DNA of 64,000 nt from Acidobacteriota bacterium. Lineage in GTDB: Bacteria > Acidobacteriota > Terriglobia > Bryobacterales > Bryobacteraceae. The DNA lies in the NCBI GenBank assembly GCA_003223115.1, contig QHXW01000225.1:19114-83113 (forward strand), written 5' to 3'. Under the pieces are notes generated by a model. That model was given only the letters and a program-made list of their open reading frames with translations, ran no database searches and was not told the DNA's origin. Made by a program: the position numbers and the translations under genes. Shown in pieces: positions 34,310 to 63,866 of this stretch. Position 1 is the stretch's first letter. Every line of letters begins with the position of its first letter.

Positions 34310-36753
34310 TTGAAGACCTTTGTATTACTGTATGGCGTAGCCTCGAATCAGAGCCCGTATGGACACTCACGCCATCCGCAGCAAGGTAAATCCGCCAGCA
34401 TGGAGCCGAGTTGCGGGCGCCAGGGCACGACCGTTCAGGGCGTAATCGGCGGCAAATTCCTTGATGGATCGTACGCGCTTTGGTTTGCCGATAAGGGACT
34501 GAGTGGACGGATCTTCAGAACCGAGGAGGTTCGAGAAGAAGTCAAGGGTGACGCCACTCCCGGCGAGAAGCCTAAAGACCCTCCCCGCATTTATCGCACT
34601 TTCGTCGAGTTACAGATTGAACCGGCAGCCCGCCTCGGGGACCACTATGTAAAAGTCGTCACCCCTTACGGGCTGTCAAACGCTGTGACTTTTAACGTAA
34701 TCAGCGACCTGCTGGTTATGGAGACGGCGCAACGGCATTCGAGCGCGAAGTACGCTCAAGTAGTGGATCTGCCTGCCCTGATCAACGGGCGCTTGGAAAA
34801 ACCGGGAGAGCTGGACTTCTACGCAGTCGACGCCAAAGCGGCTCAGGAACTTTCCTTCGAGGTTGTGCAGGCCGAAGGTTTCGATCCGCACCTGGTTCTG
34901 TATCGTCCGGGCGGAAGCTGGTTCGATCCGGATCGGCCGAGTCGAATTCTATTCGACCAGGAACCAATTTCAGACCTGATGCCGCTCAAGGCTCAGGGGA
35001 CGTTTCGAGTTCCACAGAGTGGGCGATATCTCGTGGAGGTCTCCTCGATCTTTGGCCGAGGCGCCAGCGACTGCACTTATCTTTTACGGATTTCTCTCGC
35101 GGGCGACCCGAGGCCGGCAAATGTTCAAACCCCACGCCCACAGCCGGAATGGCAGGAAAGAAGTTTCCTTCGAAAACTGCAAACCGATTGGGCCACCATC
35201 CTGGAATCCAGATCGGCCCACGAGATGGAACACCCCGCGGGGCAAGCGCGCGGTGGCTCGTCAAATCCCCGGCCGCCGTCGGATGCAGACAGAAAACCGG
35301 AGCAATCACCGGCTAGCGGCACGCACGCACCTGTTTCGGCGGTTGCGGAACGCGAGCCGAACGACGCCGTCGCCCAGGCACAGGAGATTCAGATTCCTGC
35401 AATGATCGAAGGCGCAATCGGGCATCCGGGCGACCTGGATAACTTCCGATTCAAAGTAAGTCCGGGCCAGAAGCTTGTTTTCGAAATTGAAACGCCGGAA
35501 CTAGCGCGAGTTTCCTAGGGCGACAGCACGATTCTTCCGCAAGGCATTGGCAGGAAAGGAGATGGCGCGGCCAATGCGTATATACGGAAATCAGGCGAGT
35601 AGTTTTACCGTAGTGTCAATATAAGGCGGTTTGACCGAATAAGCTGGACATTTGAAGCGAGAAATTGTACGATACCGTCATGGCCTCGGTTCGGATAGCG
35701 ATTTGAAAGATCCCCACATGCTCTCTCCACTCGACACAATTTCACTGGACCGATCAGAAACTGCACGTGCATGCTTTCATGTGTGTGACGGCCTATCTGC
35801 TGGTCACGCTGCTGCACCTGCGAGCGAAACAGAAAACCACCTTTGCTGGCGGCCCTCGCCGGCTGTTGGCCGAGTGGGCCGAAGTCCGCTGTTGCCGTCT
35901 GATCGATATGACTGGTAACAAGGGCCGACCGCGCGTGCGCTGGCAGATCCAAGAGTTTGATCAGGACCGCAAGCCCATGGTGGAAGCTCTTCACGCGCTA
36001 CCCGTCGTCGGCTGACCGCGTGGTATATACGGAATACCCGCGCTATCCTCCTCATCCTGGAAAGGATACCCCACCTTTCCTTTCGCGTCGTGGGAAAACT
36101 CCCGCTAGGGACGCTAGCTAGGGCCGCCTCAGTTCGTTCCCAGGTTAGGAGTCGTGGACAATCGGGATCAGGAACTGTTTTCAAACGTCCACCGGCGCGT
36201 ATCGGTTTATAACAACAACGCCGACCCGCAGGTGTATCTCAAGGGAATTGAGCCCAAGGCCGAGTATACGTTTGAGCGCGGCGAGTACGTCCTCCATGTC
36301 CGCGACGTAACATCGCGTTACGGCAAGCCGAGTTACCGTGTTCTGGTGCGGCGGCAGATTCCACACGTAGGTGAAATATCGATCAGCGAGGGAGATCACA
36401 TCAACCTGGTTCGCGGCCGGGCCCGGAAGCTGACCCTCACCACCTCATACGAAGAAGGCTTCACCCGAGACGTTTCGTTCTCATTCGTCAGACTGCCCGA
36501 TGGCGTGACGGCATTACCGGCCGCCGAGTTCCACGATGACCGCGCGCCCACGGACATTGACGAGAATGCGGAGGCGCTGGTTCCCAAAATTCAAAAGGCC
36601 ACGATCGTTCTGCTGGCGGATACCAACGCGCCCTTGACGTCCATGCCAAAGATTGTTCAGCTTCACTGCCAGCCTATAGTAGGCAGTCGGCCTGATCCCA
36701 CCATTCTCGTTCGGGAAATCCCTTTGATGGTGGTGAAGGCTTCGGAGCCATGA
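34310..36753 (+). pseudogene. PPC-domain (pre-peptidase C-terminal) exported protein, interrupted by a 600-bp element
   Basis: The first part (34310-35504) contains SYALWFADKGLSGRIFRTEEV, the IYRTFVELQI strand and one PPC-like beta sandwich (LPALINGRLEKPGELDFYAV). A second begins with AEREPNDAVAQAQEIQIPAM and GHPGDLDNFRFKVSPGQKL. The second part resumes at 36122 as PPQFVPRLGVVDNRDQELFS and runs through VLHVRDVTSRYGKPSYRVL to 36753. Deleting 35505-36121 joins ETPEL to GPPQFVPRLG in frame. Its stop overlaps the next ATG (ATGA), so it formed an operon with the DUF1549 cytochrome. The role is unknown; probably an envelope partner of that cytochrome. Confidence 0.85.
35505..36104 (+). mobile_element. 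600-bp deleted IS1634-like element with CTAG target duplication
   Basis: The element is bounded by CTAG at 35501-35504 and 36105-36108. Its ends are inverted repeats CGCGAGTTT and CGGGAGTTT. Inside, 35652-36015 encodes the C-terminal part of a DDE transposase with one frameshift: LKDPHMLS, then FHWTDQKLHVHAFMCVTAYLL, VRCCRLIDMTGNKGRPRVRW. These motifs fit the IS4/IS1634 group. The N-terminal and most of the catalytic domain are gone, so it is non-autonomous. Thirteen further bases with two CTAG sites (36109-36121) lie before the gene resumes. Confidence 0.82.
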
Positions 36754-38284
36754 GAATTCTCGCGGCTATTTGTGGCTTCCTGTCTGCGTTCGGCGTCGCT
36801 CTGCTCTGCGGACAGGCGGCTCATGACATTCGCCTGTGCCCCGACAACATCACGATTTGGGGGGCGCAGTCAACGCAACATTTTCTCGTGCTGGGCCAAC
36901 AGGCTGGCCTGGAGCGCGACGTCACTTCGAGTGCCCGGTTCTCTGTTTCGCCCGCCGGGATAGGCGAGGTCGACAAATCAGGAGTGTTCACTCCAAAAGC
37001 GAACGGTCCGGCTACGATTACAGCCGAGTTCCAGGGAAGAATAGCGAAAGCCGGCGTCCGCATAGAAGCGTTTGCAAAGCAGCGCTCCTTCAGTTTCGCG
37101 CACGACATTGCGTCGATTTTCACGAAGCGGGGATGCAACAACGCGGATTGCCACGGCAGTGTGAAAGGCCGCGGCGGATTCAAGCTCTCGATGAACGCTC
37201 AGTTCCCTCGGCAGGATTACACATTATCGTGGAAGGCGGGACCTTCCACGTGCTCACTCCCGACGTCGAGCCCAAGGTCGCGCGCATCAATATCAATGAG
37301 CCTGAAAAAAGTCTGCTGCTGAGGAAACCAACCTTTCAAGTGCCGCATGGCGGCGGGTTGCACTTCACGACCGGTTCCGCCGATTACGAAACGATTCTGA
37401 AGTGGATCCGTGCCGGCGCGCCGTATGGTGAGAATTCACAGCAGAGTGATACGACGGCAGAGCGCGTGGACGTCTTTCCCCAGCAGGTTGTGCTGAACTC
37501 CGGCGCGTGGCAGCAACTGCTGGTTACCGCGCATTTTCGAACGGGCATGGCGAAGATATCACGGATCAGGTGCGCTACATCGTCAACGACGAGGCCATCG
37601 CCCGCGCTGGCGAAGACGGTGTGATCGAGGCAAAGAAACCCGGTGAGACCGTGGTGCTGGTCCGAGCCCCCGGCCGCACCGTCAGCCTCCAAGTGGGCGT
37701 CATCGAAAAGCCGATAGCCAATTATCCAAAGCTCGAGGCCCGCAACTATATTGATGAGTCTGTGTTCGCCAAGCTTCGCAAGTTCCAGATACTGCCATCG
37801 GAGATGTCGGACGATTCGGAATTTCTCCGGCGCATCTGTCTGGATTTGACCGGCACCTTGCTTCCACCGGTATGCGTGCGCGAGTTCCTGGCCGACAAGA
37901 ATCCACGCAAACGCGAGGAGCTGATTGAACAGCAAGCTGATTGAACAGCTGTTGAACTCTCCCGAGTACGTGGATTTCTGGAGCTTTCGTTTCGGCGACC
38001 TGCTGCGCGTGACTTATAACACCGTCCAGGACCTCCGCATGACCAAGGCCTATGAGGATTGGATCGTCGAGAGCGTCGCCTCCAACAAGCCTTATGATCA
38101 GATGGCCCGCGAGCGCATCGCGGCACAAATGCCGCAGCCGCGCGAAATTTCTACTACATTACGGAGATCCAGCGGCCCGAAGTCACCATGCCAGAACTGG
38201 TTCGCGTGTTCTGGGGCCGGCGGATGGAGTGCGCGCAATGTCATGATCACCCGTTTGAGACTTGGAGCCAAAACCAGTTCTACT
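36750..38284 (+). pseudogene. DUF1549-type cytochrome with bacterial Ig-like domain, frameshifted and truncated
   Basis: The N-terminus has a signal peptide (MRILAAICGFLSAFGVALLC), an Ig-like domain (FSVSPAGIGEVDKSGVFTPKANG) and a cytochrome c motif CNNADCHGS. After a shift near 37220 it continues TFHVLTPDVEPKVARININ and HFTTGSADYETILKWI. A shift near 37536 leads to EDITDQVRYIVNDEA, then YIDESVFAKLRKF, the DUF1549 start. A 16-bp tandem duplication (37923-37950 region) and another shift near 38146 follow. The last recognisable part is VFWGRRMECAQCHDHPFETW, ending at a junction near 38284; the DUF1553 half is missing. Confidence 0.85.
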
Positions 38285-38289
38285 CGCCA

Positions 38290-38941
38290 TCTCTCCTTGT
38301 GGTTGTGGAATAGGGTGCGCAGCGAATTGGTGGGAGCTTACCGAATCGGCAGCGCAGATGAGATTCTTAGCCTGTTTGGCCTGAGAGGACTGTATACCAG
38401 CACCCTGTTCCATTACGATTCGGAATTCTTTCGGCGGATTGGGCCGGCCCTGGAGCTGGGACGCTCGTTCATCCGGCCCGAGTATCAACGTCTTTAACGC
38501 CGCTGCTGCTGTTGGCCGCCCGTTCATGGTCAACTCAGGAGGCAACCTGAGCAACGCGATCGACAAGTTTGGCGCCGCAACGGCCCTGCCGACTGTGATT
38601 GGAACACCGCTTCTGGTAGAGAACGTTGACTGCTGGTTCTACGCCTCCCGCAACCAGGCTTGCGGTGCGCTCGCATCGAACGCGACAGATGCTTTCGCAT
38701 TGCAGCAGCTGCGGGCTCCGGGAACAAAGTCTTCGATTTCGCCATCCACCGGGAATTCCCGATCCGGGAAGCCACAGCCTTGAAGCCACAGCCTTGGAGT
38801 TCCGGTGGGAGATTTTCAACCTGACCAACACTGTGCAGTTTGGCTTCCCGAACCGCGACTTCAGCAGCAGCGCCGCAGGCACCATCAACCCTCGCCAGCG
38901 ACCCGCACCTGATGCAATTCGCTCTTCGGCTGAAGTTCTAA
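38290..38941 (+). pseudogene. C-terminal remnant of a TonB-dependent receptor
   Basis: Recognisable pieces are GGNLSNAIDKFG, DCWFYASRNQACGALASNATDAFAL, VFDFAIHREFPIREATAL and the barrel strand EFRWEIFNLTNTVQFGFPN. A final shifted MQFALRLKF stop at 38941 is a typical receptor terminus. A 14-bp tandem duplication (GAAGCCACAGCCTT twice, about 38768-38796) breaks the frame. The part before 38500 is too degraded to assign. Confidence 0.75.
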
Positions 38942-38964
38942 AACCCCGGTATGATGGAACCCTC

Positions 38965-40033
38965 ATGACCACCAGGACCGTCGCTGCATTCTGTGCACTG
39001 TTGTTGGCAGCTCAGAATATCGCTGCCTGGGGTGTGCGAGGTCACACGCTCGCCAACCTCGCCGCAGTTGAAATGATCCCGTCAAACTGACCCATTTTTT
39101 GAAGGCGTATAAGGCTTACATCGGACATCTGGGGACCATTTCCGACACGTGGCGCAGCGTGGCCGAAGCGTACTTGCGGATCTCCGAAGATGCGAACCAT
39201 AGCTGGTACACCGAGGGCTTCGATTTCATTCCTGAGCCGGCATTCGCGAACCGAGTTTATCCTTCGCGTCCACGACGAATATCTGCGGGTCAGCAAGACC
39301 GATCCCGAGCGCGCGAAACTGTTGAACATTCGCTACACGGGCCTCCAGGCTTACTCGATCATCGAGGGCTATGAGCGTATGAAAGCCGGCATGCGGCTCT
39401 ATCGCCACGTTTTCGATCAGGATTCGCGGCCGTTTTCTAATATCTCCTCGCTTTACAGGCAGATTTCGCAGGCATTCCCGCATTTCAGGATGCCGAACGG
39501 GTCAAGGAGATGCTCACCACCGACATCGCGTTTTATATGGGATGGCTCGGCCATTATGTAGCCGATGCCGCCATGCCGCTCCACGACTCGATTCATCACG
39601 ATGACTGCGTCGGCGACAACCCCAAAGGATACACACGTGATCCGAACATTCACGGACGGTTCGAATCTGAATTTGTGGATCTGATTGCCACCACTGAGTC
39701 GAACCTGACGAAGTACGTGCCGCGAGAAGCGCGGTATCTGGACAACGCGTGGCGGCTGCGCTAAATTACTCGCTCGATGCACGTAATTTCGTGGAAGACG
39801 TCTACAGGTTGGATCGTGCCGGAGCGTTTCGGGACAAGGATAACCAGGAAGCGCGAGCTGGTCTATAAGAGGATCGCGGCAGGAGCAACTTTTCTGCGGG
39901 ACTTAGCGTACACGGCCTGGGTCGAAAGCGCGAAGCCGTTCCACAGGTGGAGCCTATCTATCAACCGCACAATCCTCGAAATCCGCATTACACTCCAGCG
40001 GCTGGTTCGGCGCCAGCCCGGCGCAATAGTTGA
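38965..40033 (+). pseudogene. S1/P1-nuclease-like (zinc phospholipase C fold) exported enzyme with several frameshifts
   Basis: ATG 38965 opens a signal peptide ending in AQNIAAWGVRGHTLANLAAVEMI. The mature N-terminal Trp and nearby His are metal ligands in S1/P1 nucleases. Later pieces carry EDANHSWYTEGFDF, WLGHYVADAAMPLHDS (the H-x3-D and H ligands) and HGRFESEFVDL. The frame breaks near 39084, 39245, 39485, 39757 (GG for GGG) and 39930. The C-terminal tail YQPHNPRNPHYTPAAGS ends at 40033. It would cleave nucleic acids or phospholipids outside the cell membrane. Confidence 0.78.
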
Positions 40034-40049
40034 GGTTCGCCGCAGCCCC

Positions 40050-40229
40050 GCAGCGCAGCCGCTCCGGCTAAATGCCCGCGACAGCCGTGCCATCAGTGCG
40101 CCGAGCGCGCAGGCCAGCGCGAAAAAGCACGCGCGTTCTAGGCAAACCCGTTTGTGAAGAGTGGTCGATTCGTGCACTTTTCTTGCACACGTCGCTCTGT
40201 TTTCACGAAGCTGCAGTATACACTCACGC
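40050..40229 (-). repeat. Degenerate second copy of the GH78 upstream region and signal peptide
   Basis: On the minus strand a GTG opens VHESTTLHKRVCLERACFFALACALG, which parallels VHGAGTPQRRVFLRRARFFALAYALG of the GH78 protein (shown in part). In a shifted frame ERLRC follows, and then similarity stops. The copy ends where the nuclease pseudogene begins, so it is a partial segmental duplication or the stump of a lost GH78 paralogue. Confidence 0.68.
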
Positions 40230-40236
40230 GCCGGCA

Positions 40237-40269
40237 GTCCGTGTCGAGGTCCGTGTCGTGTCCGTGTCG
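40237..40269. repeat. Three tandem GTCCGTGTCG units upstream of a receptor promoter
   Basis: GTCCGTGTCG occurs at 40237, 40249 and 40260, with a degenerate fourth start at 40273. It ends nine bases before the -35 box of the receptor gene, where an activator or repressor could bind. Confidence 0.6.
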
Positions 40270-40277
40270 GTCGTCCG

Positions 40278-40306
40278 TTGACATCGGCTTACGATGGTAG
40301 TATAAG
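40278..40306 (+). promoter_or_regulatory. Sigma-70 promoter of the TonB-dependent receptor gene
   Basis: TTGACA (40278-40283) and TATAAG (40301-40306) are separated by exactly 17 bases. The start codon ATG 40340 is about 27 bases past the expected transcription start, with GGGAGG (40329-40334) as the ribosome-binding site. Confidence 0.75.
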
Positions 40307-40339
40307 TGCCTCCACATTGGACACGAACGGGAGGCTGTT

Positions 40340-43300
40340 ATGTCGACCTTTTTCTACAGGTTCTGCCTGTTCGCTCTGTGCTTCGTTATTCTGGCTGCTC
40401 AGATTGGCTTCGGACAAAGTTCAAATGCTACCCTTACCGGCGTGGTTTCGGACCCGGCGGGAGCCGTGGTTCCCGGCGCCGAGGTAAAACTGACGAACAC
40501 AGCCACTGGAACGGTCACCAGCCTGAGCACCGCTACCGACGGTCTTTTCTCGTTTCCCAACCTGCAGCAGTCAACCTACGATCTGCAGGTGGCTGCGAAG
40601 GGGTTCCGGGACTTCGTGCAGAAAGGCATCACGGTCCATCTGAATGAATCGGTCCGAGTGCCGGTCATGCTCCAGGTAGGGACAGCCGAACAGACGATCG
40701 AAGTGGTTGCCGACGCCTCCCCGTTAAACTTCGAAACCGGCGAGGTCAAAGGAGCCATCGCACGTACGGAAATAGAAACTCTCCCTCTGCAGGTCGCGGG
40801 TGGCCAGCGTTCGGCCGCTGTATTCGTAACCCTTTTGCCAGGCGTGAATGCGGGAGGCACTGCAGACGCTTTCACGGCACGCTTCAACGGCGGCCAACTG
40901 TTTTCCGATGAAGCCGTTCTCGACGGCGTCAGCATGATGGAAGGGCTCTTGAGCCAGAGCGGCATGGTCGCCATCCACAACGACTTCCCCATCTCGCCCG
41001 AATCGGTCGGTGAAATCAGCGTCCTGATGTCCAACTTCGATCCGCAATACGGGTCGTCAGCCGCCGCTGTAATTGTTGCCAGCACGAAGGAAGGCACCAA
41101 TAATCTACACGGCGGAGTGTATGAGTACCATCGCAACAGCTTCTTCAATGCGCGCCAGTTCGGTGTCGCCCGCAAATCGAAGGACTTGGAAAACGACTTC
41201 GGGGCCTACACCGGCGGCCCACTCAAACTGCCGTTGTTCTGGTCTGCCCGGAAGAAGTCGTACTATTTCGTCAACTTCGAAGGTTACCGCTCGGTGGGTT
41301 CTACCAACAAGCCGATTCTGACTGTTCCCACAGAAAAAATGCGTAAGGGCGATTTCAGCGAATGGCCGAATCCGATTTTCGACCCCGACACAACCCGAAC
41401 GGTCAACGGCAAGAGCGTGCGCAATCAGTTCATGGGTTGTGACGGTAAGACGCCCAACGTGATCTGCCCCACGGATCCGCGCCTCGCGGCTTCTCTCGCG
41501 CCAGGATGGCTGAAATTCGTTCCGACGCCCAACCGTCCCGGGATAAGCGCGAATTGGGAATCTCCAAACGGCCTGGCGAGCTCGCTTAATGCGAACACTG
41601 ATCAGTGGGACGTCCGCGGGGACCAATACTTTGGCGACAATGACCACTTCTCTTTGACGTATCACTACCGCGGTACGCTTCCGTTCACCCAACACGCATT
41701 TCCCGCGGTTATCGACGGGAGCCAAACACGCATACCGAACTACAGTCACGTGGCCCGATTCAACTACGATCACACTTTCCAGCCAACTCTGCTGAATCAC
41801 TTCGCGGCAGGTTATCTCGATCTTCCCACAAAGCTCTACACCTCGAGTGACTGTTGTGTGAGCCAGCTCCCGTTGATCCCCGGCGTCTACAATCACGCGC
41901 ACGCTTCGGGCATCAGTTTCAGCGAATATGACGGCTATGGAGGCTCGGGAGACTTTTACACCCGGCGGCCGACCTGGGTCTTCAACGACACGCTGACCTG
42001 GGTGCGCGGAAAGCATTCGCTGCATTTTGGCGGCGAATACCGCAATGTTCAATATCCAACCCATACCGAAGCCAATGGCGCGGGGAGCTTTTTCTTCTCG
42101 GATCTGAATACGGGTCTTCTCGGAATCCCCAGCGGGAATTCTATGGCCAGCTTTCTTTTGGGTGACGTGGCCTCCGCCAGCGCAACATTCTATACTCTGC
42201 CCGATTGGAAACCAAAGGGCGACGCGTTTGGCTGGTTCGTTTCCGATAACTGGAAGGCGACGAGCAAGCTGAGCCTTACGCTCGGTCTGCGTTGGGATGT
42301 GTTTGAACCATCGGTAGAGAAAAAAGATCGGACTTCGTTTTTCGACCCGGTTGGCCCGAACCCAGGAGCCGGCGGCCGACCCGGAAGGCTGGCGTTCGCC
42401 GGAAAGAAGTGGGGCGATGCCAGCTATGGCGACCGGCACCCGGAAAAAAGTTTCCATAAGGGCTTTGGTCCGCGCCTGGGTCTGGCGTACGCCCTGAACC
42501 AGAAAAATGTAGTTCGCGCCGGCTACGGCCTCTTTTTCGAGCAGAATTTCTACCCTGGGTGGAATGGCGGCATCGCCACCGATGGATTCAATGCCAATGT
42601 GTCCTTCAATAGCTCGCTGGGCGGTCTGCAGCCCGCGTTTCTGCTTCAGAACGGCTTCCCGCAAAACTTCGCGCATCCGCCGTTCATCAATTCGACTTAT
42701 TTAAACGGACAGAATGCGCCTAACTATCGTCCCCTGGACGCCAATCAGCTCCCATATGCCCAGCAGTGGAACCTGTCGCTCGAGCACCAGTTCACAGAGA
42801 ACACGTATGTGGCAGTCGCTTACGTCGGAAATAAAGGGACTCGCCTTCTTTCCCAGATCGCCCCGGTCAACGCTCTGAACCCCAGCCTGCTCTCCATGGG
42901 CAATCACCTTTATGATCAATTCGAGCCTGGCCAGACGCAACTGGACGGTGTGTCCATTCCTTACTCCGGTTGGGTGGAACAAATGACCGGTTGCGCGCCG
43001 TCGGTGGCACAGGCGCTGCTGCCGTACCCGCAGTATTGCGGCAACATTTACGGCCAAAACGAAAACGTCGGCAACTCCACCTATAACTCCCTGCAGATCA
43101 AAGCAGAGAAACGCTTCTCGCACGGCGTTTGGATGCTGGCTTCCTACACGTGGTCGAAGACTATCACCGACGCCGAGAGCGCGCAAAGTGCGACCGGGGC
43201 GTGGAGCGGCTTGACCGGCGTGATCTCGCCCTTCGAACGAAAACGGAATAAGTCACTGGCTTCAAGCGATGTCCCGCAGATCCTGTCGGTGTCCTTCACT

Positions 43301-43858: not shown

Positions 43859-43951
43859 TCGGCGAATGGCTTTGCCGGCGGGATGATCCGCGGCGGAACC
43901 AAATGTTACAATCCGCTTACGCTGGCAATGAGTGGCCTGACTACCAGAAAC

Positions 43952-47119: not shown

Positions 47120-47120
47120 C

Positions 47121-48563: not shown

Positions 48564-48594
48564 AGGCGTGTAGGGATCGGTTTGTAGCCGGGAC

Positions 48595-48630: not shown

Positions 48631-48645
48631 GGCTGCTAAAAATCA

Positions 48646-48674: not shown

Positions 48675-48680
48675 CCCGCT

Positions 48681-51553: not shown

Positions 51554-51564
51554 GCCGGATATCG

Positions 51565-53259: not shown

Positions 53260-53918
53260 CGCATGACGAAGTGACGCGGCGCTCCTGGATTCTTCGCCTA
53301 GGAGGCGCAACCGCTCTGACCGGCTTCAGCGGCACGCTGGTAGCCGCGGAGCCACCCCTGCCGCCGGGCCTGTACGAGCCGTCGCTCGACCATCTGGCAC
53401 ACTCGCTGAAGACGGCGACCGCGCCTATGCCGGATCCACCTCCGCCACGCTATTTCGCGCCCGAAGACTTCTCGCTGATCCAGGAACTGGTTGCGCTGAT
53501 GCTTGGTGAGGAGCCAGCAGTGCCGCCGGTGCCGGAGATCGCGGTTTGGATTGATCTGATCGTGGGGCGTTCGGATAGCGTTCGCACCGCGGCGCGCTCG
53601 CTCACACCCGCGCACCGCCGCTTGGCGGTAGATTTCTACGGCCAAGACACTGTGCGCGAACTGGAAAGCGAAGAGCCCCAGGCGATTTGTCGCGCTGGGC
53701 TCGCAGCGTTAAAGCGGGGCGGCTTCCGAAATCTCGATACGACCGCGCGCATGGCGCAGTTAGTCGAATTGGAAAACGCAGGCAATCCATTTATTGCCTG
53801 GCTCAAACGCCGCGTGCTGGACGGCTTTTATACCTCCAGGCAAGGGCTTCAGGAACTGGACTACAAGGGCAACGCGTTCTGGCCGGAATCGCCTGGCTGC
53901 GGGCATGATCATTCGTGA
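53256..53918 (+). CDS. Gluconate 2-dehydrogenase subunit 3 family protein (second copy)
   Basis: The start MTHDEVTRRSWILRLGGATAL resembles a twin-arginine signal. Mature motifs FAPEDFSLIQELVALMLGEE and RRVLDGFYTSRQGLQELDYKGNAFWPE correspond to the family pattern seen in the protein at 9008. It has 220 residues. It overlaps the GMC gene by four bases and should export and anchor the flavoprotein. Confidence 0.85.
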   Translation: MTHDEVTRRSWILRLGGATALTGFSGTLVAAEPPLPPGLYEPSLDHLAHSLKTATAPMPDPPPPRYFAPEDFSLIQELVALMLGEEPAVPPVPEIAVWIDLIVGRSDSVRTAARSLTPAHRRLAVDFYGQDTVRELESEEPQAICRAGLAALKRGGFRNLDTTARMAQLVELENAGNPFIAWLKRRVLDGFYTSRQGLQELDYKGNAFWPESPGCGHDHS

Positions 53919-53971
53919 GGGGCCGGCCGGGCCAGCGAGGGGGACGCACGTCCAGATACTGAAGGGAAAAT

Positions 53972-55165: not shown

Positions 55166-55796
55166 CCCGGAAGCTCGGTCCCGAGGATACGACAAATGAT
55201 TAAGACTCCATTCGGCATCTTGGCTTTCCTCTCGATCGCCTGTGCGGCTCCGGACAGATCATCTGTGGCAACTCGCGTGGCTGGAGGGGACCAGCCGTTC
55301 AATCTCATCGAGATCGAGGGCCGATTCCTGATCAGCACCAACAACGGCTACAACGCGAACTATTTGCAGGCGTACGACGAGTCCCGCGGGCAGGTGGTGG
55401 ACAAGCTGGAACTGCCGAGTTTGTTTCGGGCTCGCCTATGAGCCGAATGAGAAGCTTCTCATCGCTTCTAACGGCAGCAGTGGCGTGTACGTCGTCCCGT
55501 TCGAAGCGGGCATTTTCGGTAAACCAAGACTAATGAAGATCGGTGGATGCAAGCTGACGGCGGGGTTGTTCATTCAGGATCGCACGACCGCCATTGTTGC
55601 GTGCAACCAAAATCATGAACTGTCGTGGTTTGATTTGCGCAGCGGAGACGTGCGCATTCGCTTGCGTCGTGGGCGAGTTTCCGTTCGCCATTCAGCACTT
55701 ATTGGGAATCGCATCGCGGTCTCTAACTGGGGCCAATCGTCGGTCACGGTGATCGACACCTCCAGCCTGTCCAAAGTGACGGAGATCAAGGTCGGT

Positions 55797-56831
55797 CGAT
55801 GTTGCGACATTGTGCTATACCTCGCTATCCCTCTGAAAATATTGATTGCTGACCTTTGGCGGATCGCTTCTGAATCCAAGGCTTCCATCGGAATCTGCCA
55901 CGGCGCACAGAGCACCACTTGACGCGCTGGCAGTATTTTACCGGCGATCTGGAGCGCGGAGACGACCACTAACCAGGAACGGAAACAGTTGCTGCGCATG
56001 GCGATTGAATCCGCGTTGATTCCAGTCTGTTTGCCACTCATCCAGTTCAGCTTAAAGCAGCCAGAACGATTTGTCCAGAGAAATCGAACAAAAATAATCA
56101 AAAATGTTTCAGCGTTGCGATTGGGTCTCCAACACACCCGCTTCCGCTCGGCCTTCGACGATCCCCCAATCATTGAGCAGATGCACGACGACGATGCGTT
56201 GGAAACCCAGCGTGCGGGCTCGATCCGCGAGACCGAATTGGAGGCGTGTGCTTTCTCGGTTGTGAATCAATTGGCTAGGTTTGGACTGACGGATATAAAC
56301 GAGAGCTTTCCGAGAAAGGCGTTCAGGCGTGAGTTTCGGATTCATCCTCTCCTCAGTTTCCAGGCTGCTCGCTTTTAGCTTCTGCCGCGCTGATTAATAG
56401 TTCCCTCAGGGCGATGGTCAGTTCGTTCTGCTGCCCCTCGGGAGTTGCTGTTGCAGGCATGTTGAAGAGGGAAAGATTCATTTGCGGGTAGAGTGGCTTT
56501 GCCGATCGTTTCATCTAGGCCCTCCTTGGGCGATGAATTCAGACCAGCTTTAGCGCAATCGACGTGAATAGGCAAAGTCGTGAGCAGATCGTGAAGTTCA
56601 GAAAGTGCTTCTGTAGAAACCAGCGCAGCGCCGAGCGAGAATTGCGAGCACTCCGGACTCAACATCCAGCTCGGAAGGGGATATATTTTTCCATCTGACT
56701 CGCAGTAGATGCATTCGCCGTCGCGGTCTTTTCGTCGCTTTCGAACAGGTAGGGACAAACCGAAGAGCGGATGCCATCGGTAGTAGATGGTGACCGTCTC
56801 GAAATCATAAGCATTATGTAATGTAACTGGA
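55797..56831 (-). mobile_element. About 1-kb remnant with serine-recombinase N-terminus and a DUF5372-like gene
   Basis: TCGGT at 55792-55796 and 56832-56836 flanks the segment. On the minus strand 56345-56109 encodes LSRKALVYIRQSKPSQLIHN, the catalytic N-terminus of a resolvase/invertase (Ser in YIRQS). Only about 55 residues are preserved before the sequence diverges. Upstream of it on the same strand is a small protein gene. No inverted-repeat ends were found, so the exact borders depend on the 5-bp repeat. Confidence 0.7.
56109..56345 (-). pseudogene. Serine recombinase, N-terminal fragment
   Basis: MNPKLTPERLSRKALVYIRQ and ESTRLQFGLADRARTLGFQR match the resolvase catalytic domain of large serine recombinases. 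The expected D-x-G-R-S-G loop and the DNA-binding half are absent. Confidence 0.72.
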
Positions 56832-56842
56832 TCGGTAGCCAT
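56375..56842 (-). CDS. Small element-borne protein, y4bD/y4pK (DUF5372)-like
   Basis: The core YDFETVTIYYRWHPLFGLSL and LPSWMLSPECSQFSLGAAL resembles the short proteins often found beside transposases and serine recombinases in soil bacteria. The function is unknown. The ATG at 56842 lies in the host gene, and the first five codons are host sequence, so the native start may be lost. The C-terminal third looks like low-complexity run-on. Confidence in the family is moderate. Confidence 0.5.
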   Translation of the reverse strand: MATDPVTLHNAYDFETVTIYYRWHPLFGLSLPVRKRRKDRDGECIYCESDGKIYPLPSWMLSPECSQFSLGAALVSTEALSELHDLLTTLPIHVDCAKAGLNSSPKEGLDETIGKATLPANESFPLQHACNSNSRGAAERTDHRPEGTINQRGRS

Positions 56843-58314
56843 CCCAACCAGATGTTAGTCATTCCCGAGGCGAAGGTGCTGGCGGTAAGCTGCTCCGACT
56901 CCGATTCGATCTCACTGATCCATCTGGAAACGTCGCGGGAAATCCGCCGCATCGACCTGCGTCCGGTGGGCGGCACGCTGAGCGGGTGCAGCCCAACACG
57001 CTGTCATACGACCACGGCAGGCTCTTCGTGGCGCTTGCCGGCGTGAACGGCGTGGCTGCTTTTCGCGTGGAGCAAGAGAAGGATCTCGAGATCGCATTCG
57101 AGGGCGTGCTACCCGTTGGCGCGTACCCTGCTGCGCTGCTTTACACCGCTCACATCAAGACACTTTTCATCGCAAACGGCCGCCGGAGTTATGATCAAGT
57201 CCTGGGCGACATGCCTGAGGGTAACGGCAGTCCAGAGTTGACGCTGTTCGGCGAGAGGGTCACTCCCAATCATCACGCACTAGCGCGCGAGTATATCCTG
57301 TTCGATAACTTCTACGTGAATGGCGATGTCAGCGCTGATGGTCACTTCTGGTCGACGGCCGGAACCAGCACCGAATACGTGGACAAGATGTGGCCGCACG
57401 AATACTCGCAGCGCTTGCCCGGGATATTGGATGCGCCGTATGACGGCGATGCGGATCATGACCAGCCAGTCGCAGCCCCGCAGTCGGGATTTCTGTGGGA
57501 CCGGCTGCTGAAAGCAGGCATCAGCTTCCGCAACTACGGCGAGTGGTACGCGCACGAACAGCAAGATCCGAAGAAAGTGCACGTCTATCTGGCTGGGTTG
57601 AAGAACCACTCCGACATGAATTTTCGCGACGACCTGGGAGACGTCACCGATCAGCAACGCGTGAACGAGTGGGAGCGGGAGTTCACTGAGTTCGAAAAGA
57701 ACGGTCAACTGCCGCGCTTTTCCCTCATCTACGTGCCTGCGACCACACGGTGGGGACCGAGCCCGGCTTTCAAACGCCAACAGCCATGGTTGCGGACAAT
57801 GATCTGGCGCTGGGACGCATCGTCGAGCGCATCTCGAAGAGCCGCTATTGGCCGAAGAGCGCCATTTTCGTGCTGGAGGATGACGCCCAGCACGGGCCTG
57901 AACATGTGGACGCGCATCGCTCGCCCCTGTTGGTCATTTCGCCCTATACGAAGCGGCACGCGGTTTCGAGTAAATCGTACTCGACAGTGTCGGTGGTGAA
58001 AACCATGGGCCAGTTACTGGGTATCAAGAGCCTGACATACTTCGATGACCGGGCGTCCAGCTTGCTCGGCGAGTTTCAGACAAAGGCTTCCACCGGAGCC
58101 TATCGGTGCCGCCAGCCAGGGGTCTCACTGGAAGAGAAGAATCCGGAAAATGGCCCGGGCGCCAACGAGTCCGCTCAGTGGAATTTCCGCGGACAAGATC
58201 TGGCGCCGTGGTCTGAGCTGAATCGCGTGATCTGGCAATCCGTAAAGGGTGCGGAATCGGAACCGCCGCCGCCCGTATTCCGGGTCGCCTCTTCCGGCAT
58301 CTGATCTGGAGGCG

Positions 58315-59331
58315 TTACGATTTGCCGACGATCAGCACTGCGAATGACCCCGGCTTCACCCTGCGCTGAGGCCGCTTCGACGGATCGCTTGCGGGGATTT
58401 CCACGAATTCGGCCGCCGGAAGAAAAATCTTCTTGGTCTTCGGATCGAATGCCATGGTCTTCGCGCTCCGCTGTGTCATGACGGCTCCCGCGTCTTCGTA
58501 TTCGTCCGCGGACTTTTCATGGTAGACGCTCAGAGTGCCATCTCCGCACGAAAGGAAAATCAAACCCGACCCTGGGTCAAAGGCGGCAAAGTCGACGCCC
58601 GAGCCAATTGGAAAGCTGGTAATCACCTTCCCAGTGCCGGAATCCATGACGACCAGCTTCGGCTCTTTGCGGCAGCCGATGAATAAGCGGTTGGTCTTGG
58701 CATCGTACGCCAGGCCCGTCGGAGTCTCCGCCACGCCGATGGGAAATCGCTTCTTTACTTCCAGCGTTTTCGGATCAAAAACCACTACTTCGGCAGTGTC
58801 CTCGCTGTTGACATAAATCATGCCATCGGCGCCGATGACGGCCTGCTCGCCGTCGCCCTCCGCTTTCACCGTACCTACAACCTCGCCGCTCGCGGCGTCG
58901 ATGGCGCTGATGTCGTGAGAGCCGTGGTTATTGGTAAATACGCGCTTGGTGGCAGGATCGTAGTAGATGCCGTCCGGCCCCTTACCCACATCGATTTTCT
59001 TGATGAGCTGCAGGGACGACGGATCGAACATCGATACTTTGTTCTCCCGGCCATTGCTGGTGAATCCATGCTTGAAATCGGATGCGATCGCAATTCCGTG
59101 AACCCCGGGCGTATCCGGAATTGCGCCAACAACCTTTCCGCTATCCGCGTCCAGGACGTCCACCTGCGTGCCGTGCGAAAGATAGATCCGCCGGGCCGAA
59201 CTGTCTAACGTCACGTAGTCAAAACCGCCGTCGCCCGGAACCGGGTACCGGCCCTCCACCTTGTAGTGAGTCGCGCCTTGCAACAGCAGCGCAACGGAAA
59301 AAACAAAAACGTGTTTCGTGTACCGCATCAT
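58315..59331 (-). CDS. YncE-family beta-propeller protein, exported
   Basis: ATG 59331 (GGGAGAGAA just upstream) begins a signal peptide (MMRYTKHVFVFSVALLLQGA). Seven blades follow, for example GDGGFDYVTLDSSARRIYLS, VHGIAIASDFKHGFTSNGRE, GPDGIYYDPATKRVFTNNHG and TPTGLAYDAKTNRLFIGCRK. It is about 338 residues. YncE-like proteins bind nucleic acids or metals or act as periplasmic scaffolds; no catalytic residues are obvious. It converges with the broken YncE/phosphatase gene, and the propellers resemble each other only at fold level. Confidence 0.88.
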   Translation of the reverse strand: MMRYTKHVFVFSVALLLQGATHYKVEGRYPVPGDGGFDYVTLDSSARRIYLSHGTQVDVLDADSGKVVGAIPDTPGVHGIAIASDFKHGFTSNGRENKVSMFDPSSLQLIKKIDVGKGPDGIYYDPATKRVFTNNHGSHDISAIDAASGEVVGTVKAEGDGEQAVIGADGMIYVNSEDTAEVVVFDPKTLEVKKRFPIGVAETPTGLAYDAKTNRLFIGCRKEPKLVVMDSGTGKVITSFPIGSGVDFAAFDPGSGLIFLSCGDGTLSVYHEKSADEYEDAGAVMTQRSAKTMAFDPKTKKIFLPAAEFVEIPASDPSKRPQRRVKPGSFAVLIVGKS

Positions 59332-59427
59332 TTCTCTCCCGCGTCGACGCTGAGACATGGTCTGCCCAGGCGCGTCGATCCATCCGAAGTTTACATAAAT
59401 TACGCGTCAGGGACAATCAGCGAATTG

Positions 59428-60979
59428 TTACAATCGGCCCCGCGATGTCTTAGACTCCCTTGCGCCAGTCTTTGTCGGCGTTGCTTGGCGCTGGTAGTCG
59501 ATCAGTCCAGGAGGTGATGCGCGAGAACCCTGGCTCAATTGGACGGTCATAAAGCCGTCCGGATTCAGGGGCTGTGCGCAAGCCCAGCGGATAGCATGGC
59601 GGATGCCGGCTTTGACGCCTGCCGGACCTTTCCGGCGCGCGGCTCTCCGGCATCGAGTGAGCCGCTGCGACAGAACTTGCCATCCGGGCTTTCGATGCGC
59701 GCAACACTCCGGGACCCCCGCGACTCCATCGTTCGCAAATCCGGCGATCACCTCCGCCGTTCCGTAACGTTTTCTTTGCCAGATCCATACCGGCCGAACG
59801 CGATAACCCATGCGCCGCTGCAATGCGCGGAACCCGTTGGGATCGCGGTCGTGGTAGCGCACGAGATTCCGGCCTCCGTCCAGAGCGATCAATAGTTCGC
59901 TCCCAGGTCGAGCACATGCAGCATGGCGTTTTCGCGTAAATTGACGCCCGCAGCATCCACCGGAATCGTGTTGATGTCGTAATCGTGATGGGAGCCGTCC
60001 TCCATCACCACCGGGAGCCACGGCGGACGATTAGCGAGGCTCTTCAATCCGGATGGGCTCTTCCACCAGAATGCTGTCGGAGTGCAACCAGCAGCCAGCG
60101 CGCACCGCCATGTCGACGACCTCGCAATTCCCTACGTATTGCTGATATCCGGCTGCGTGTTCACCGCAAGTGGCGTACGCCTCCAGGTGTCGAGCTGCAG
60201 TCGCGTCATGGCGACGAAGGTCCTCTCGGCAGTGACGTAATCCGGAAAAGGGTTCGGCAAAGGGCTGGTGTGGCCTTCACCCCAAAAACCGTACTGCATC
60301 AGGTCCATGTACTCGACCAGGGGATTCGAATCGAACTCCGCCGCCCGCAGCTCGTTCAAATCACGAAATGCTTTCTGAAATTCCGGATGATCATAGCGGG
60401 GCTCGACGGCATGGAAATCCCGGCCGTGGCGCCCGAGTTTACCGATCTTGGCCACAGGCACCGGATCGTGCAGAAAATCCGGCATCGCAATCTTAGCGGG
60501 CTGAATTTCCGATTGGAAAGTTGCACACGGAACGCGACTCGCAGGCCGAGCCGTTTGGTCACGTCAAAAGTCAGCTTCCAGATGGGATGCAAATCGAGCT
60601 TGCCGGCCCGGCTCTGCACGTCACGCCAGTCACAGCGGATATACAAGACGTCAACGAACGGAAGCGACGAGAGTTTTTCGACGTGCTGCTCGATGGTTTC
60701 CTCGCCGCGGCGCGCCGCAAGCGACGGCCCGCTTTCTTCCCAGGTGTAACCCACCAGTCCGCCCCCAGTTGCGGATGGGTTGATCGGAGGGTGTGGTTGC
60801 CGCGATGGTGAACCAACCCTCGTCCTGGTCGATCCCGAATGGCCCCTGGTTGAGGCGGTCTCTCGGCAGGCCCTGGGCCGAAATCGTAACCCTCCCAGCG
60901 ATGTGGAGGAACGTCGGGCCAGTGCCGGGATCACGGACAGCGGCCCGGCGCGCAGCAGATTGCGGCGGGAGAGTTTCAT
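59428..60979 (-). pseudogene. Exported TIM-barrel-like (glycoside-hydrolase-like) protein, frameshifted
   Basis: ATG 60979 opens a Tat-type signal (MKLSRRNLLRAGPLSVIPAL). Pieces in different frames include GYTWEESGPSLAARRGEETI, LPFVDVLYIRCDWRDVQSRA, RLGLRVAFRVQLSNRKF, EYMDLMQYGFWGEGHTSPLP, NLVRYHDRDPNGFRALQRRM and WIWQRKRYGTAEVIAGFAND. The order (signal, barrel strands, beta sandwich with GFANDGVAGVPG) suggests a glycosidase-like protein, possibly the DUF4832 type. At least three shifts occur (near 60890, 60480 and 60020). The exact 3' end is uncertain. Confidence 0.6.
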
Positions 60980-61121
60980 AGGTACGTCGACTGCGCGTGC
61001 TTCGCGGTCTTTCTGTTCGCAGCCGCTTAATCGGGTTCTTACACTCATCATAGCTGCTACGGTTCCGGACCATGGCTTCCTGGCAAATGGGGCGGACATC
61101 ACTGCTGTAACATCCGTAGAG

Positions 61122-61980
61122 ATGCAGAATGAGCGACCCTTCCCCGCAGTGGTTCACCTCGTCGGCATCGTAATCCTCTCCACCACCTTGCTGGCCATCG
61201 GCCTTGAGCGTGCCGGGGCCGCCAGCCCTTTTTCGGACCCCGTTTCGCGAATTCGCGCCCAGGACGAATCGAATTACGTCAGCGGTGCAGTCCACTTGGC
61301 CACTGAAGGCGGCTGGTTAACACCGAAAGTGCTCGGCAGATATTTTCTGTACAAGCCGCCGCTCCTCGTCTGGCTGGCGGGACTTTCTATGAAGCTTTTC
61401 GGCATCGCCCTCTGGGCGGTTCGATTGCCTGCTCTCGCGGCAGCTGTGTTTGCGACAACCGTGCTGTTCTGGTGGACGCACGCTGCTAGATCGGCTGTGG
61501 TGGCTTGGTCCACGGCCCTTTTACTATTGTCCGACCCGCTGTGGCACATCTTCACGCGCCTTTGCTATACCGACATGCTCCTTGTGGCATCGACTACAGG
61601 CGCCGTGGCAAGCCTCTATGGGGACCGGACGTTATCGAGGACATCAAGTTTCTGGGGATTCGCGCTTTGTACCGCAGCCGGAGTCATGGCGAAGAATGTG
61701 TCCGGTGGACTCCCGGTGCTCGTAGTGCTCTTGTACTGCGTGCTCGCTCCAAAAAACGAGCGCCCAAGGCTCTCGCGTATCGCCAGCAACCGCGGCAGCG
61801 CTCGCGCTCACGACCTCTACCAAATTTTTGTTCACCCAAAATGGTTCTGGGCGGATTACGTCGAGGTCCAACTCCTGGGTTCCGGGATCAGCCCGCCTGG
61901 CCAGATGTCCGGAGACGGGCCAGTCTGGTTCTACCTGCGCCGGCTGAGGTACGTGCGGCGGGTTTTCTACTCGTCCACCG
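61122..61980 (+). pseudogene. Truncated membrane glycosyltransferase (ArnT/PMT type)
   Basis: The N-terminus has a membrane helix, then RIRAQDESNYVSGAVHLATE, containing the acidic DE of GT39/GT83 enzymes, and LYKPPLLVWLAGLSMKLFG. Several further helices follow, then DLYQIFVHPKWFWADYVEVQ. Family members transfer sugars from polyprenyl phosphate and are 500 or more residues. Here similarity stops near 61960, and the frame runs into the antisense of the desaturase gene until 62072. The C-terminal half is therefore missing. Confidence 0.72.
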
Positions 61981-61981
61981 C

Positions 61982-62836
61982 CTATGCGGCTTCCCGTTCG
62001 GCCATCGCGCTGTTGATTTTCGCGACCCGCACGGATTTCGCTATGCCCAGGAACATGAGGATCTTGATCTGAATCCAGGACAAATCGAACTCATACCATG
62101 CCAGTCCATGGCGCGCTGAGGTCGGGTGAGCGTGGTGGTTGTTGTGCCAGCCCTCGCCTGAGGTCATCAGGGCAATCAACCAGTTATTGCGGGAGTCATC
62201 GCGGGTGGCGAACCGGCGCGTTCCCCACATGTGTGTTGCGGAGTTGACCAGCCAGGTAGTGTGCAGACCCACGACGACGCGAAGGCAGACTCCCCATAGC
62301 ACGAACGAAACACCGCCGAGCGCAAAGAGCAGGACGCCCAGCACGATCATGGGAACCCAATGATAGTAGTCGAGCCAGACGTAGAAGCGATCTTTCGCCA
62401 GATCTGGCGCGTACCTCGACATCTGCGGGGCGTCGCTATGCTTGCTCTCCCCCACCAGAAGCCAGCCCATGTGAGCCCACCAGCCGCCATCGCGGGGTGA
62501 GTGCGGGTCGCCAGGCTGATCGGATTTCTGGTGGTGGATCCGATGCGTGGCCACCCAGAAAATTGGCCCTCCTTCGAGCGTCAATGTCCCGCAAACAGCA
62601 AAAAAGTACTCGAGAGCCAAGGGCACTTGATACGACCGGTGAGTGTGCAGCCGATGGTAGCCCATGCTGATGCCGAGGCCGGTACACATCCAGTAGAGGA
62701 AGAGTGCGACGGCAAGTGCATGCCAACTGAACATGAATAATGCCGCCACGGCTCCGAGGTGGAAAAGGCCGAAGGCGATGCAATTGGTCCAGTTTATCTT
62801 TTGAGGGTCAGATGTATCGACCAAATCGGCGCTCAC
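61982..62836 (-). CDS. Acyl-CoA/acyl-lipid delta-9 fatty acid desaturase
   Basis: The three histidine boxes that bind the di-iron centre are HRLHTH (about 61-66), HRIHHQ (about 98-103) and HNNHHAH (about 232-238). They lie between four predicted membrane helices, with GWWAHMGWLL and FDLSWIQIKILMFLGI typical of the family. Length 284 is normal. The start is GTG 62836, with AGGAGG seven bases upstream. It introduces a double bond into acyl chains in the inner membrane, using an electron donor encoded elsewhere. It is intact, though both neighbours are decayed. Confidence 0.93.
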   Translation of the reverse strand: MSADLVDTSDPQKINWTNCIAFGLFHLGAVAALFMFSWHALAVALFLYWMCTGLGISMGYHRLHTHRSYQVPLALEYFFAVCGTLTLEGGPIFWVATHRIHHQKSDQPGDPHSPRDGGWWAHMGWLLVGESKHSDAPQMSRYAPDLAKDRFYVWLDYYHWVPMIVLGVLLFALGGVSFVLWGVCLRVVVGLHTTWLVNSATHMWGTRRFATRDDSRNNWLIALMTSGEGWHNNHHAHPTSARHGLAWYEFDLSWIQIKILMFLGIAKSVRVAKINSAMAEREAA

Positions 62837-62868
62837 GGGAGCCTCCTAATTGTCGCTCTACCTCCAAA

Positions 62869-63526
62869 CTAACAGGGAGTTGACGTGCGGTCTGTAATGA
62901 TTCTGTAATTTTGAAGGCGCCAGGGCTCACCGCGGAAGGTATTCGCGCAGCACCGGGTACAAATTTCGAGCAAACCCGGTGGCGACGGCTGTTGCCGCGG
63001 CGTCTCTGCCGTCGGCCGACCATCGTCCAGAATATTGCCTTCCCGGATGACTCCGATTCCAAACGCCGTCAAGATGCCCGCAGCCATCCGGCTAGCTAGC
63101 AAGTAGTTGCAAGGGCAGCGTCACCTGGTTGTAGACCAGTGCCAGTTTCGGCAACATGAAAAGTCCCAGCAGCAGCGGCAAAGCCCACGCGCGCAGCCAG
63201 TCGACACCTCCGAGGTAAAGAATTGCGCCGGCAACCGATACCAGAAACGCCAGCGAGCCCGCGCAAAGACCTGCGCCGAGCGTGGCTGCGAACTGCTGGC
63301 CGGCGCCCACCGCCAGAACCGCAAGACCCTACTAGTTTGGTTCGGCCGGCAGCCGCCGCCACCACCGCTCGCGCTCTCTCCACACGATCCATAGGATGAC
63401 AATCGGCACCACGACGCCGTGCGACATGTCTTCGTCGTTCGACCATTGCTGGAACATCCCTCGCAGAGTAGGAGCGTAACAAACCGAAAGCGCTACTGCA
63501 GATAGGACGACAACGGTTTGGCGCAT
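62869..63526 (-). pseudogene. Exosortase remnant with CTAG scars
   Basis: ATG 63526 begins MRQTVVVLSAVALSVCYAPT, then MSHGVVVPIVILWIVW, typical of exosortase (XrtA-type). Two adjacent amber codons (63329-63334) interrupt the frame, which continues AATLGAGLCAGSLAFLVSVA and LGGVDWLRAWALPLLLGLFM, then YNQVTLPLQLLAS. A 4-bp CTAG duplication (63092-63099) then shifts to SRMAAGILTAFGIGVIREGN. The conserved catalytic Cys/Arg/His part is absent. Exosortases process PEP-CTERM proteins; this copy cannot. Confidence 0.8.
63092..63099. repeat. CTAG tetramer duplication causing a frameshift
   Basis: The sequence GCTAGCTAGC contains two adjoining CTAG copies. Deleting one copy (4 bases) restores LLASRMAAGI in the exosortase frame. 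Confidence 0.75.
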
Positions 63527-63553
63527 CCCCTTTGACGGCAGACAGGCTGCCAC

Positions 63554-63866
63554 GGCCTTGAGATGCTAGCCTAGGCCTAGCTTAGCTAGCTAGTGTTCTG
63601 TGTCAGAAGTTTTTGTAACGTGACCGTATTAAGTACAGCGGCTCGGAAACTGCTGGGAGAACGGAGGCGTCTCGGCTGATGCGTTGATACGGTGCCTGGG
63701 CAGAAGCGTGTGGCTTCAAGCGCCTGTATCCGATTGTGTTGACGTCAGCGTTTGGGCGAGTGGAGGAAGCGGCGCGGCTTCGCGAAAGGCGACTGGCAGT
63801 GGCGCCACCGCCGGGTCGGTTGGGGGAATCTTTTGGGAAGACTTGCGAACACTGTCTCCAACTCTG
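63554..63866. other. Non-coding stretch with a five-CTAG cluster
   Basis: No reading frame here has coding character. The notable content is 63565-63593, where CTAG occurs five times in 29 bases (63566, 63571, 63577, 63586, 63590), forming overlapping GCTAGC, CCTAGG and AGCT palindromes. Confidence 0.5.
63565..63593. repeat. Cluster of five CTAG tetramers
   Basis: CTAG starts at 63566, 63571, 63577, 63586 and 63590. Elsewhere in the window it occurs roughly once per kilobase, so the density is striking. Confidence 0.8.

What the first reader, a model, noticed from the sequence alone, without database searches (positions are those of the whole stretch)
35501..63593. CTAG clusters as possible scars of a CTAG-targeting element
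CTAG is sparse overall (about one per kb by eye, below expectation for this GC content). It is packed at 12178-12219 (3), 35501-35517 (2), 36105-36121 (3), 63092-63099 (2) and 63565-63593 (5). The exosortase case is a pure CTAG duplication that causes a frameshift, as expected after precise excision leaving a target duplication. The 36105-36121 cluster sits at the junction of a real CTAG-flanked element.
Basis: partly seen in the sequence, partly recalled or inferred. Interest (0 to 1): 0.7.

Follow-up and report, generated by a model that had tools for sequence, protein, structure and literature searches.

The report
Genome-wide scars at doubled CTAG sites
In this draft bacterial genome the four-letter words CTAG and CTAA stand doubled (as in CTAGCTAG) 4 to 19 times more often per base than in its two nearest held relatives, and these doublets are likely footprints left when small jumping DNA elements that duplicate CTAG on insertion jumped out again, in several cases leaving a broken gene.

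Summary
CTAG is depleted in the window (57 against 98 expected), yet 10 of 56 spacings are 16 bp or less (0.8 expected). Whole-genome CTAGCTAG counts: 154 here, 6 and 9 in the two same-genus genomes. The strong excesses of doubled tetramers are all YTAR words (CTAG, CTAA/TTAG, TTAA) or their rotations. Three of five orthologue alignments show a net 4-bp addition at the doublet; one paralogue shows 12 bp. Seven of 10 doublets with coding sequence on both sides shift the frame (controls 5-10%). Elements flanked by exact CTAG exist: a 198-bp MITE (6 of 6 places) and an IS1634-derived 600-bp element in the window (35505-36104). An intact orthologue shows that this element sits at one former CTAG that is now four. 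The exosortase doublet is real. Two of the five reported clusters are something else: 12182 is a 15-bp tandem repeat, and 35515 lies inside the element's end. Excision is inferred: no locus was seen both filled and scarred, and no mover with CTAA flanks was identified. Some CTAG tracts look like landing pads of short IS110-type elements.

The parts
34310..35503 (+). Left piece of the interrupted gene (relatives carry a PPC domain, PF04151); start codon not established
   Evidence: Intact relative P0002, 592 aa, 87% identical; alignment A1
35501..35504 (.). CTAG, left copy of the target
   Evidence: Codon L of the host gene; directly left of the element
35505..36104 (+). 600-bp mobile element derived from an IS1634-family insertion sequence; ends CGCGAGTTT and CGGGAGTTT (inverted); contains the CTAG at 35515
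   Evidence: Same ends on contigs C517 and C163; right end followed by CTAG in 5 of 5 places, the window included
35740..36012 (+). C-terminal piece of an IS1634-family transposase
   Evidence: NF033559.2, E 2.8e-7, 29.9 bits, below the whole-protein cut-off of 100; no Pfam hit
36105..36108 (.). CTAG, right copy directly after the element
36109..36121 (.). GGACG and a further CTAGCTAG doublet at the same former CTAG, read as an added footprint
   Evidence: Sequence; right gene piece resumes at the last CTAG
36118..36750 (+). Right piece of the interrupted gene
   Evidence: Alignment A1 with P0002
63098..63526 (-). Exosortase-like gene, upstream part (two pieces, 63335-63526 and 63098-63328, split by two stop codons)
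   Evidence: PF09721, 43.3 and 31.9 bits, gathering score 25.7; frames
63092..63099 (.). CTAGCTAG doublet at which the exosortase frame ends in a stop and continues in another frame
62872..63090 (-). Downstream piece of the exosortase-like gene, other frame
   Evidence: Reading by eye; no Pfam or NCBIfam hit by itself
63566..63593 (.). Tract of five CTAG with spacers C, GC, CTTAG and none, about 400 bp from the end of the contig
   Evidence: contig length
12182..12215 (.). Three CTAG within a 15-bp tandem repeat; not counted as a scar
   Evidence: Read by eye

Best explanation
The doubled CTAG (more widely YTAR) sites are likely footprints of DNA elements that insert at CTAG, duplicate those four bases, and later excise, leaving both copies behind. 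Shown by calls: the doublets are in large, species-specific excess; the strongly doubled tetramers are YTAR words; at three of five alignable doublets there is a net addition of 4 bp; the genome holds elements with inverted ends and exact CTAG on both sides. Inferred: the elements leave by double-strand cuts, and host end joining (three Ku genes are present) seals the flanks with 0 to about 10 filler bases; each footprint turns one target into two, so clusters grow by repeated visits to one site. The likeliest movers are the IS1634-derived group and its MITE with ends CGsGAGTTT, because their CTAG copies abut the element directly, which predicts the commonest state, no filler.
For: CTAGCTAG 154 here against 6 and 9 in the genus. 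Doubled tetramers in 1.31 Mb: CTAG 54 against 1.10, CTAA/TTAG 25 against 2.07, TTAA 8 against 1.13; ranks 1, 2, 4 of 126, ranks 3, 5 and 6 being rotations of CTAG or CTAA (the sample was chosen partly for CTAGCTAG). Independent whole-genome test: CTAACTAA, both strands, 129 here against 23 and 9 in the genus. Net 4-bp additions at L153:18297, L019:5093 and L148:12997 (identities about 60-74%). Paralogue: CTAG against cCTAGactaagaCTAG in an IS200-type gene. Frame shifts at 7 of 10 coding doublets against 16 of 313 and 28 of 287 in controls (Fisher 4e-7 and 2e-5). MITE with CTAG on both sides in 6 of 6 places, IS1634-derived right ends followed by CTAG in 5 of 5. In the window one CTAG of an intact relative corresponds to four CTAG and an element. 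Ku: 3 genes here.
Against: No locus was seen both filled and scarred. The filled sites with CTAG do not explain the CTAA and TTAA doublets; one weak inverted-end hit with CTAA flanks (L017:12599-13033) was not followed. One of five alignable doublets is native (L022:3675) and one is at a stop codon in a poor alignment (L022:16933). Of the 7 frame shifts, 2 are not those of a 4-bp addition, and one of the other 5 (L011:10444) may be an ordinary gene boundary (and by eye). The relatives' sample also has 2 CTAGCTAG against 0.15 expected. Ku number does not track doublets: G010 has 3 Ku genes and 7 CTAGCTAG, G040 has none and 28. G003 has 12 IS701 matches but 10 CTAGCTAG. The recurrent fillers CTTAG, CTATAG and CTTAGCTAAG are unexplained.
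Confidence: 0.6

Rival explanations
1. A YTAR-specific staggered cut without any inserted element: a nuclease, or a transposase that cuts its target and fails, leaves 5'-YTAR overhangs that are filled in and joined, which also doubles the four bases.
For: Zero filler is the commonest state (54 pairs); the CTAA class has no identified element; Ku genes are present.
Against: Elements with exactly this target sit in the same genome, and at 36105-36121 the extra CTAGs stand beside one of them at the same former CTAG. No such nuclease was looked for.
Confidence: 0.2
2. The tracts are a native repeat family (REP-like palindromes built of CTAG, CTTAG and CTAAG) that spreads as a unit; IS110-type elements land in it.
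For: Recurrent palindromes CTAGCTATAGCTAG and CTAGCTTAGCTAAGCTAG at different places; 12 of 16 distinct right borders of the 300-bp repeat read CT-AGCT.
Against: Most tracts are the bare doublet, the flanks of most are unique, and three orthologue alignments show net 4 bp only. Some of the recurrent palindromes are counted at borders of the 300-bp repeat itself.
Confidence: 0.1
3. Assembly or sequencing artefact, such as an all-frame stop linker or a misjoin.
For: The genome is a draft of 594 contigs; CTAGCTAGCTAG stops all six frames.
Against: CTAACTAA shows the same excess; the doubled bases match the flanks of real elements; added lengths of 4 bp fall inside otherwise collinear genes. Raw reads were not seen.
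Confidence: 0.05
4. Chance or a general tendency to small tandem duplication.
For: A few doublets are native.
Against: The median doubled tetramer is at 0.86 of expectation, and tandem copies of other unit lengths are about as common in the sister genome.
Confidence: 0.01

Closest known systems
Target-duplication footprints of cut-and-paste transposons (eukaryotic hAT, Harbinger and mariner; recalled)
   Same: Doubled target with small filler at the former site, frameshifts in genes
   Different: Here in a bacterium, in excess over the whole genome, with a CTAG/YTAR target; excision not observed. A passage in PMC3119063 names the target duplication as a possible footprint in Halobacterium, without such a tally in the passages seen
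IS1634 family insertion sequences
   Same: Transposase pieces in the window element and on C177 match NF033559.2
   Different: All transposase pieces are fragments below the family cut-off; the short copies lack a transposase; exact CTAG duplication in the copies seen
IS701 family insertion sequences
   Same: An element on the window's contig is over the family cut-off (NF049999.1), with CTAG at its borders
   Different: Its CTAG repeats lie one or more bases outside its own terminal CTAG, also in 5 of 7 related loci of other genomes, which predicts a spacer in the scar. Passages of PMC8024623 give 4-9 bp repeats for two Geobacillus members
IS110 family (RNA-guided) insertion sequences
   Same: The 300-bp repeat shares both ends with an element that encodes an IS110 transposase (L136; NF033542.1, 142.8 bits, cut-off 140)
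   Different: Lands in CTAG tracts; guide RNA not tested. Landing of IS621 in REP palindromes is recalled, from no call

Membership tests
Excision footprint of a DNA transposon | Short added copy of the target at a site that is single in relatives | tested here: met
   3 of 5 alignable doublets show a net 4-bp addition; 1 is native, 1 unclear
Excision footprint of a DNA transposon | Same target duplicated around elements still present | tested here: met
   MITE 6 of 6 places with CTAG on both sides; IS1634-derived right ends 5 of 5. Only for CTAG, not for CTAA or TTAA
Excision footprint of a DNA transposon | The same locus filled in one genome and scarred in another | not testable with these tools
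   No closer genome than the two same-genus ones was at hand; no such pair seen
IS1634 family (window element) | Transposase of the family | tested here: inconclusive
   Window piece 29.9 bits, C177 pieces 90.7 and 46.4 bits, all below the whole-protein cut-off of 100, as expected for fragments
IS1634 family (window element) | Inverted ends and target duplication | tested here: met
   CGCGAGTTT and CGGGAGTTT ends, CTAG on both sides in the window and on C163; the C517 copy begins at the contig start
IS701 family (L053 element) | Transposase over the curated cut-off | tested here: met
   223.9 bits, cut-off 170; frame broken near the C-terminus
IS110 family (300-bp repeat) | Shares ends with an element that encodes the DEDD transposase | tested here: met
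   L136: PF01548 90.2 bits, NF033542.1 142.8 bits; ends
IS110 family (300-bp repeat) | Bridge RNA that pairs with the target | not tested
   No RNA model was built

The most novel reading that the evidence does not exclude
A bacterial genome shaped by transposon excision in the manner of hAT elements: CTAG-targeting elements cut themselves out, host end joining seals the gaps and leaves doubled targets with filler, each footprint turns one target into two so that hot spots feed themselves, and a second, RNA-guided group of IS110-type short elements has come to use these growing scars as landing pads.
Probability: 0.3. Interest if true: 0.78.

Novelty: new variant of a known kind. Interest (0 to 1): 0.6.

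Why it matters
Bacterial insertion sequences are usually counted by the copies present; departures are thought to be rare or invisible (recalled). If these doublets are scars, one genome carries a countable record of well over a hundred departures, with target, repair filler and gene damage readable at each. Excision by end joining in wild bacteria would become measurable, and short frameshifts in such draft genomes would be suspected transposon scars before assembly errors. Scars that serve as targets of IS110-type elements would be a chain in which one mobile element builds the landing site of another.

Tried and rejected
Linker artefact: CTAGCTAGCTAG stops all six frames and could be an assembly linker; set aside because of the CTAACTAA excess, the 4-bp additions in collinear genes and the element ends. 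The 300-bp repeat as maker of the tracts: its variable TAG-rich borders first looked like a tailed retroelement; dropped after an IS110 gene was found between the same ends, which makes the tract its target. Hairpin (P-nucleotide) fillers: CTTAG/CTAAG and CTATAG fit, but P-type fillers of CTAA are not in excess (6 against 12 expected) and that class shows CTTAA instead; left open. IS701 as main maker: its border spacing predicts a spacer, and G003 has 12 matches with 10 CTAGCTAG. DNA search of 56900-63560 in seven relatives gave no hit over the exosortase part. The reading of 35515 as a scar was dropped. The MITE, IS701, IS1634-derived and IS110-type elements gave no blastn hit in 656 kb of relatives' stretches, too little to call them absent there.

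Paper searches (open-access library; one search found no paper) listed no report of genome-wide target-doublet scars in a bacterium, as far as titles and abstract starts show. I read passages of PMC8024623, PMC3119063 and PMC2170065 only.

Sample limits: the 1.31-Mb sample of the own genome (and the window) was chosen partly around listed CTAGCTAG places, so its 54 doublets exceed the genome rate; whole-genome numbers are. TTAATTAA was not counted in whole genomes. Of 143 doublet or spaced sites set against relatives, 8 had a spanning alignment; two of these are the own IS701 element matching its own locus, and L137:5803 (CTAGaCTAG) gave no clear answer, which leaves the five CTAGCTAG sites reported. 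At L019:5093 the second relative shows 3 gap columns at the site, the first 4.
Full report
Observation. The window holds 57 CTAG against 98.3 expected from dinucleotide shuffles. Ten of 56 spacings are 16 bp or less, 0.79 expected.

Genome scale. The window is contig C140:19114-83113 of a 9.14-Mb draft genome of 594 contigs. CTAGCTAG occurs 154 times there, 6 and 9 times in the two same-genus genomes, and 0 to 28 times in 58 further relatives, with 4 to 28 in genus g37 of another family. In 1.31 Mb of own sequence every doubled tetramer was compared with a Markov-3 expectation: CTAG 54 against 1.10, CTAA/TTAG 25 against 2.07, TTAA 8 against 1.13. These rank 1, 2 and 4 of 126 classes; ranks 3, 5 and 6 are rotations of CTAG or CTAA; the median class is at 0.86. 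Together they are the set YTAR. In the relatives' sample of the same call CTAA and TTAA doublets are 0 (0.53 and 0.18 expected), but CTAG doublets are 2 (0.15 expected). The own sample is enriched for CTAGCTAG by choice; scaled from its expectation the genome should hold about 8, so 154 is about a 20-fold excess. The YTAR idea was then tested on whole genomes with CTAACTAA, both strands: 129 here against 23 and 9 in the genus, and 2, 13, 21, 16, 6 and 1 in six others. Tandem copies of other unit lengths from 3 to 25 show no clear difference from the sister genome.

What a doublet is. Five CTAGCTAG sites could be aligned across in a relative. Three show a net addition of 4 bp (L153:18297, L019:5093, L148:12997), one is native sequence in an open gene (L022:3675) and one sits at a stop codon in a poor alignment (L022:16933). 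Within the genome, near-identical paralogues show CTAG against cCTAGactaagaCTAG, a 12-bp addition, in an IS200-type transposase gene (L008 against L133), and CTAA against CTAGCTAG (L008 against L145, 91% identical). Codon-based frames could be called on both sides and on one strand at 10 of 52 doublet tracts: 7 shift, 5 of them by the amount of a 4-bp addition, of which one (L011:10444) may be a gene boundary. Controls shift at 16 of 313 (sample of other doubled tetramers), 28 of 287 (single CTAG) and 3 of 33 (GATCGATC). Forty of the 52 were not coding on both sides and two changed strand. Spaced CTAG pairs gave 3 shifts in 6 callable of 60.

The window. The 36105-36121 cluster is the right border of a 600-bp element, 35505-36104. 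Its ends recur on contigs C517 and C163, and the right end is followed by CTAG in 5 of 5 places, the window included. It carries the C-terminal piece of an IS1634-family transposase; a longer relative on C177 encodes more of it in two frames. The interrupted gene has an intact relative of 592 aa, 87% identical (P0002), which reads ETPA-L-GPPQ; the window's left piece ends ETPE-L at 35503 and the right piece begins L-GPPQ at 36118. So the place of one CTAG now holds CTAG, element, CTAG, GGACG, CTAG, CTAG. The exosortase doublet at 63092-63099 lies between pieces in different frames; the two pieces before it match PF09721, the piece after it has no profile hit by itself. That gene also holds two stop codons at 63329-63334.

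The elements. A 198-bp MITE with inverted ends CGGGAGTTTACT is flanked by exact CTAG on both sides in 6 of 6 distinct places (C249 was listed twice). An IS701-family element lies on the window's contig (L053). Seven related loci were found in other genomes; the 5 that hold both ends have a CTAG one or two bases outside the element's own terminal CTAG on both sides. A 300-bp repeat has 24 matches at 22 places (two places are split). Of 16 distinct right borders 12 read CT-AGCT, 2 CT-AGTTA, 1 CT-AGCCC and 1 CT-CGTT. It shares both ends with an element that encodes an IS110 transposase, so I read CTAG tracts as its target.

Mechanism. The simplest account is insertion at CTAG with a 4-bp duplication, excision by double-strand cuts, and end joining that keeps both copies. 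Ku genes: 3 here, 1 in each same-genus genome, so the repair route exists, but Ku number does not track doublets (G010 has 3 and 7 CTAGCTAG; G040 has none and 28). Between successive CTAGs the filler is 0 in 54 pairs and 1 to 8 bases in 72 pairs, against about 1 expected per length. The recurrent fillers CTTAG/CTAAG (7), CTATAG (4) and CTTAGCTAAG (3, two of them at borders of the 300-bp repeat) are not explained. Shown: insertion, element identity, the 4-bp additions. Inferred: excision and end joining. A YTAR-specific cut without an element is the main rival, helped by the lack of an identified element with CTAA or TTAA flanks.

Known and new. Footprints that keep the target duplication are textbook for eukaryotic transposons (recalled) and are mentioned for Halobacterium in a passage of PMC3119063. 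IS701 and IS1634 members move in Geobacillus, with 4-9 bp repeats over the families studied (PMC8024623, passages). The searches named under Tried and rejected listed no genome-wide tally of such scars in a bacterium. I file it as a new variant of a known kind.

Noticed in passing
L136:9988-11744 and L076-L099: A 300-bp repeat at 22 places shares both ends with an IS110-type element; 12 of 16 right borders read CT-AGCT, often within CTAG tracts.
   Followed up: partly
L231-L235: IS701-type elements in other genomes, among them one binned as Nitrosomonadales, have CTAGnCTAG or CTAGnnCTAG at both borders.
   Followed up: partly
G038, G040-G043, G045, G046, G051, G052, G055, G056 (genus g37): Genomes of this genus in another family have 4 to 28 CTAGCTAG; G040 and G045 have no Ku match and few CTAACTAA.
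   Followed up: no
G000:C217, C519, C86: Three Ku matches in the own genome, one in each same-genus genome.
   Followed up: no
L136:3372-3398: A tract of CTAA units with CTTAA between them resembles the CTAG tracts with CTTAG.
   Followed up: no
L145:413-619: A repeat of about 180 bp lies between TTAGTTAG and CTAACTAA, a few bases from each.
   Followed up: no
window 63329-63334: Two in-frame stop codons in the exosortase-like gene, overlapping another CTAG.
   Followed up: no
window 63594-64000: The stretch between the five-CTAG tract and the contig end gave no family hit in the two pieces tried; contigs often break at repeats.
   Followed up: partly
window 37925-37965: A short direct duplication in a gene with a DUF1549-type domain, read by eye.
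   Followed up: no
L007:3260-3385: A tandem copy of about 65 bp that includes the end of the 300-bp repeat and its CTAGCTAG.
   Followed up: no
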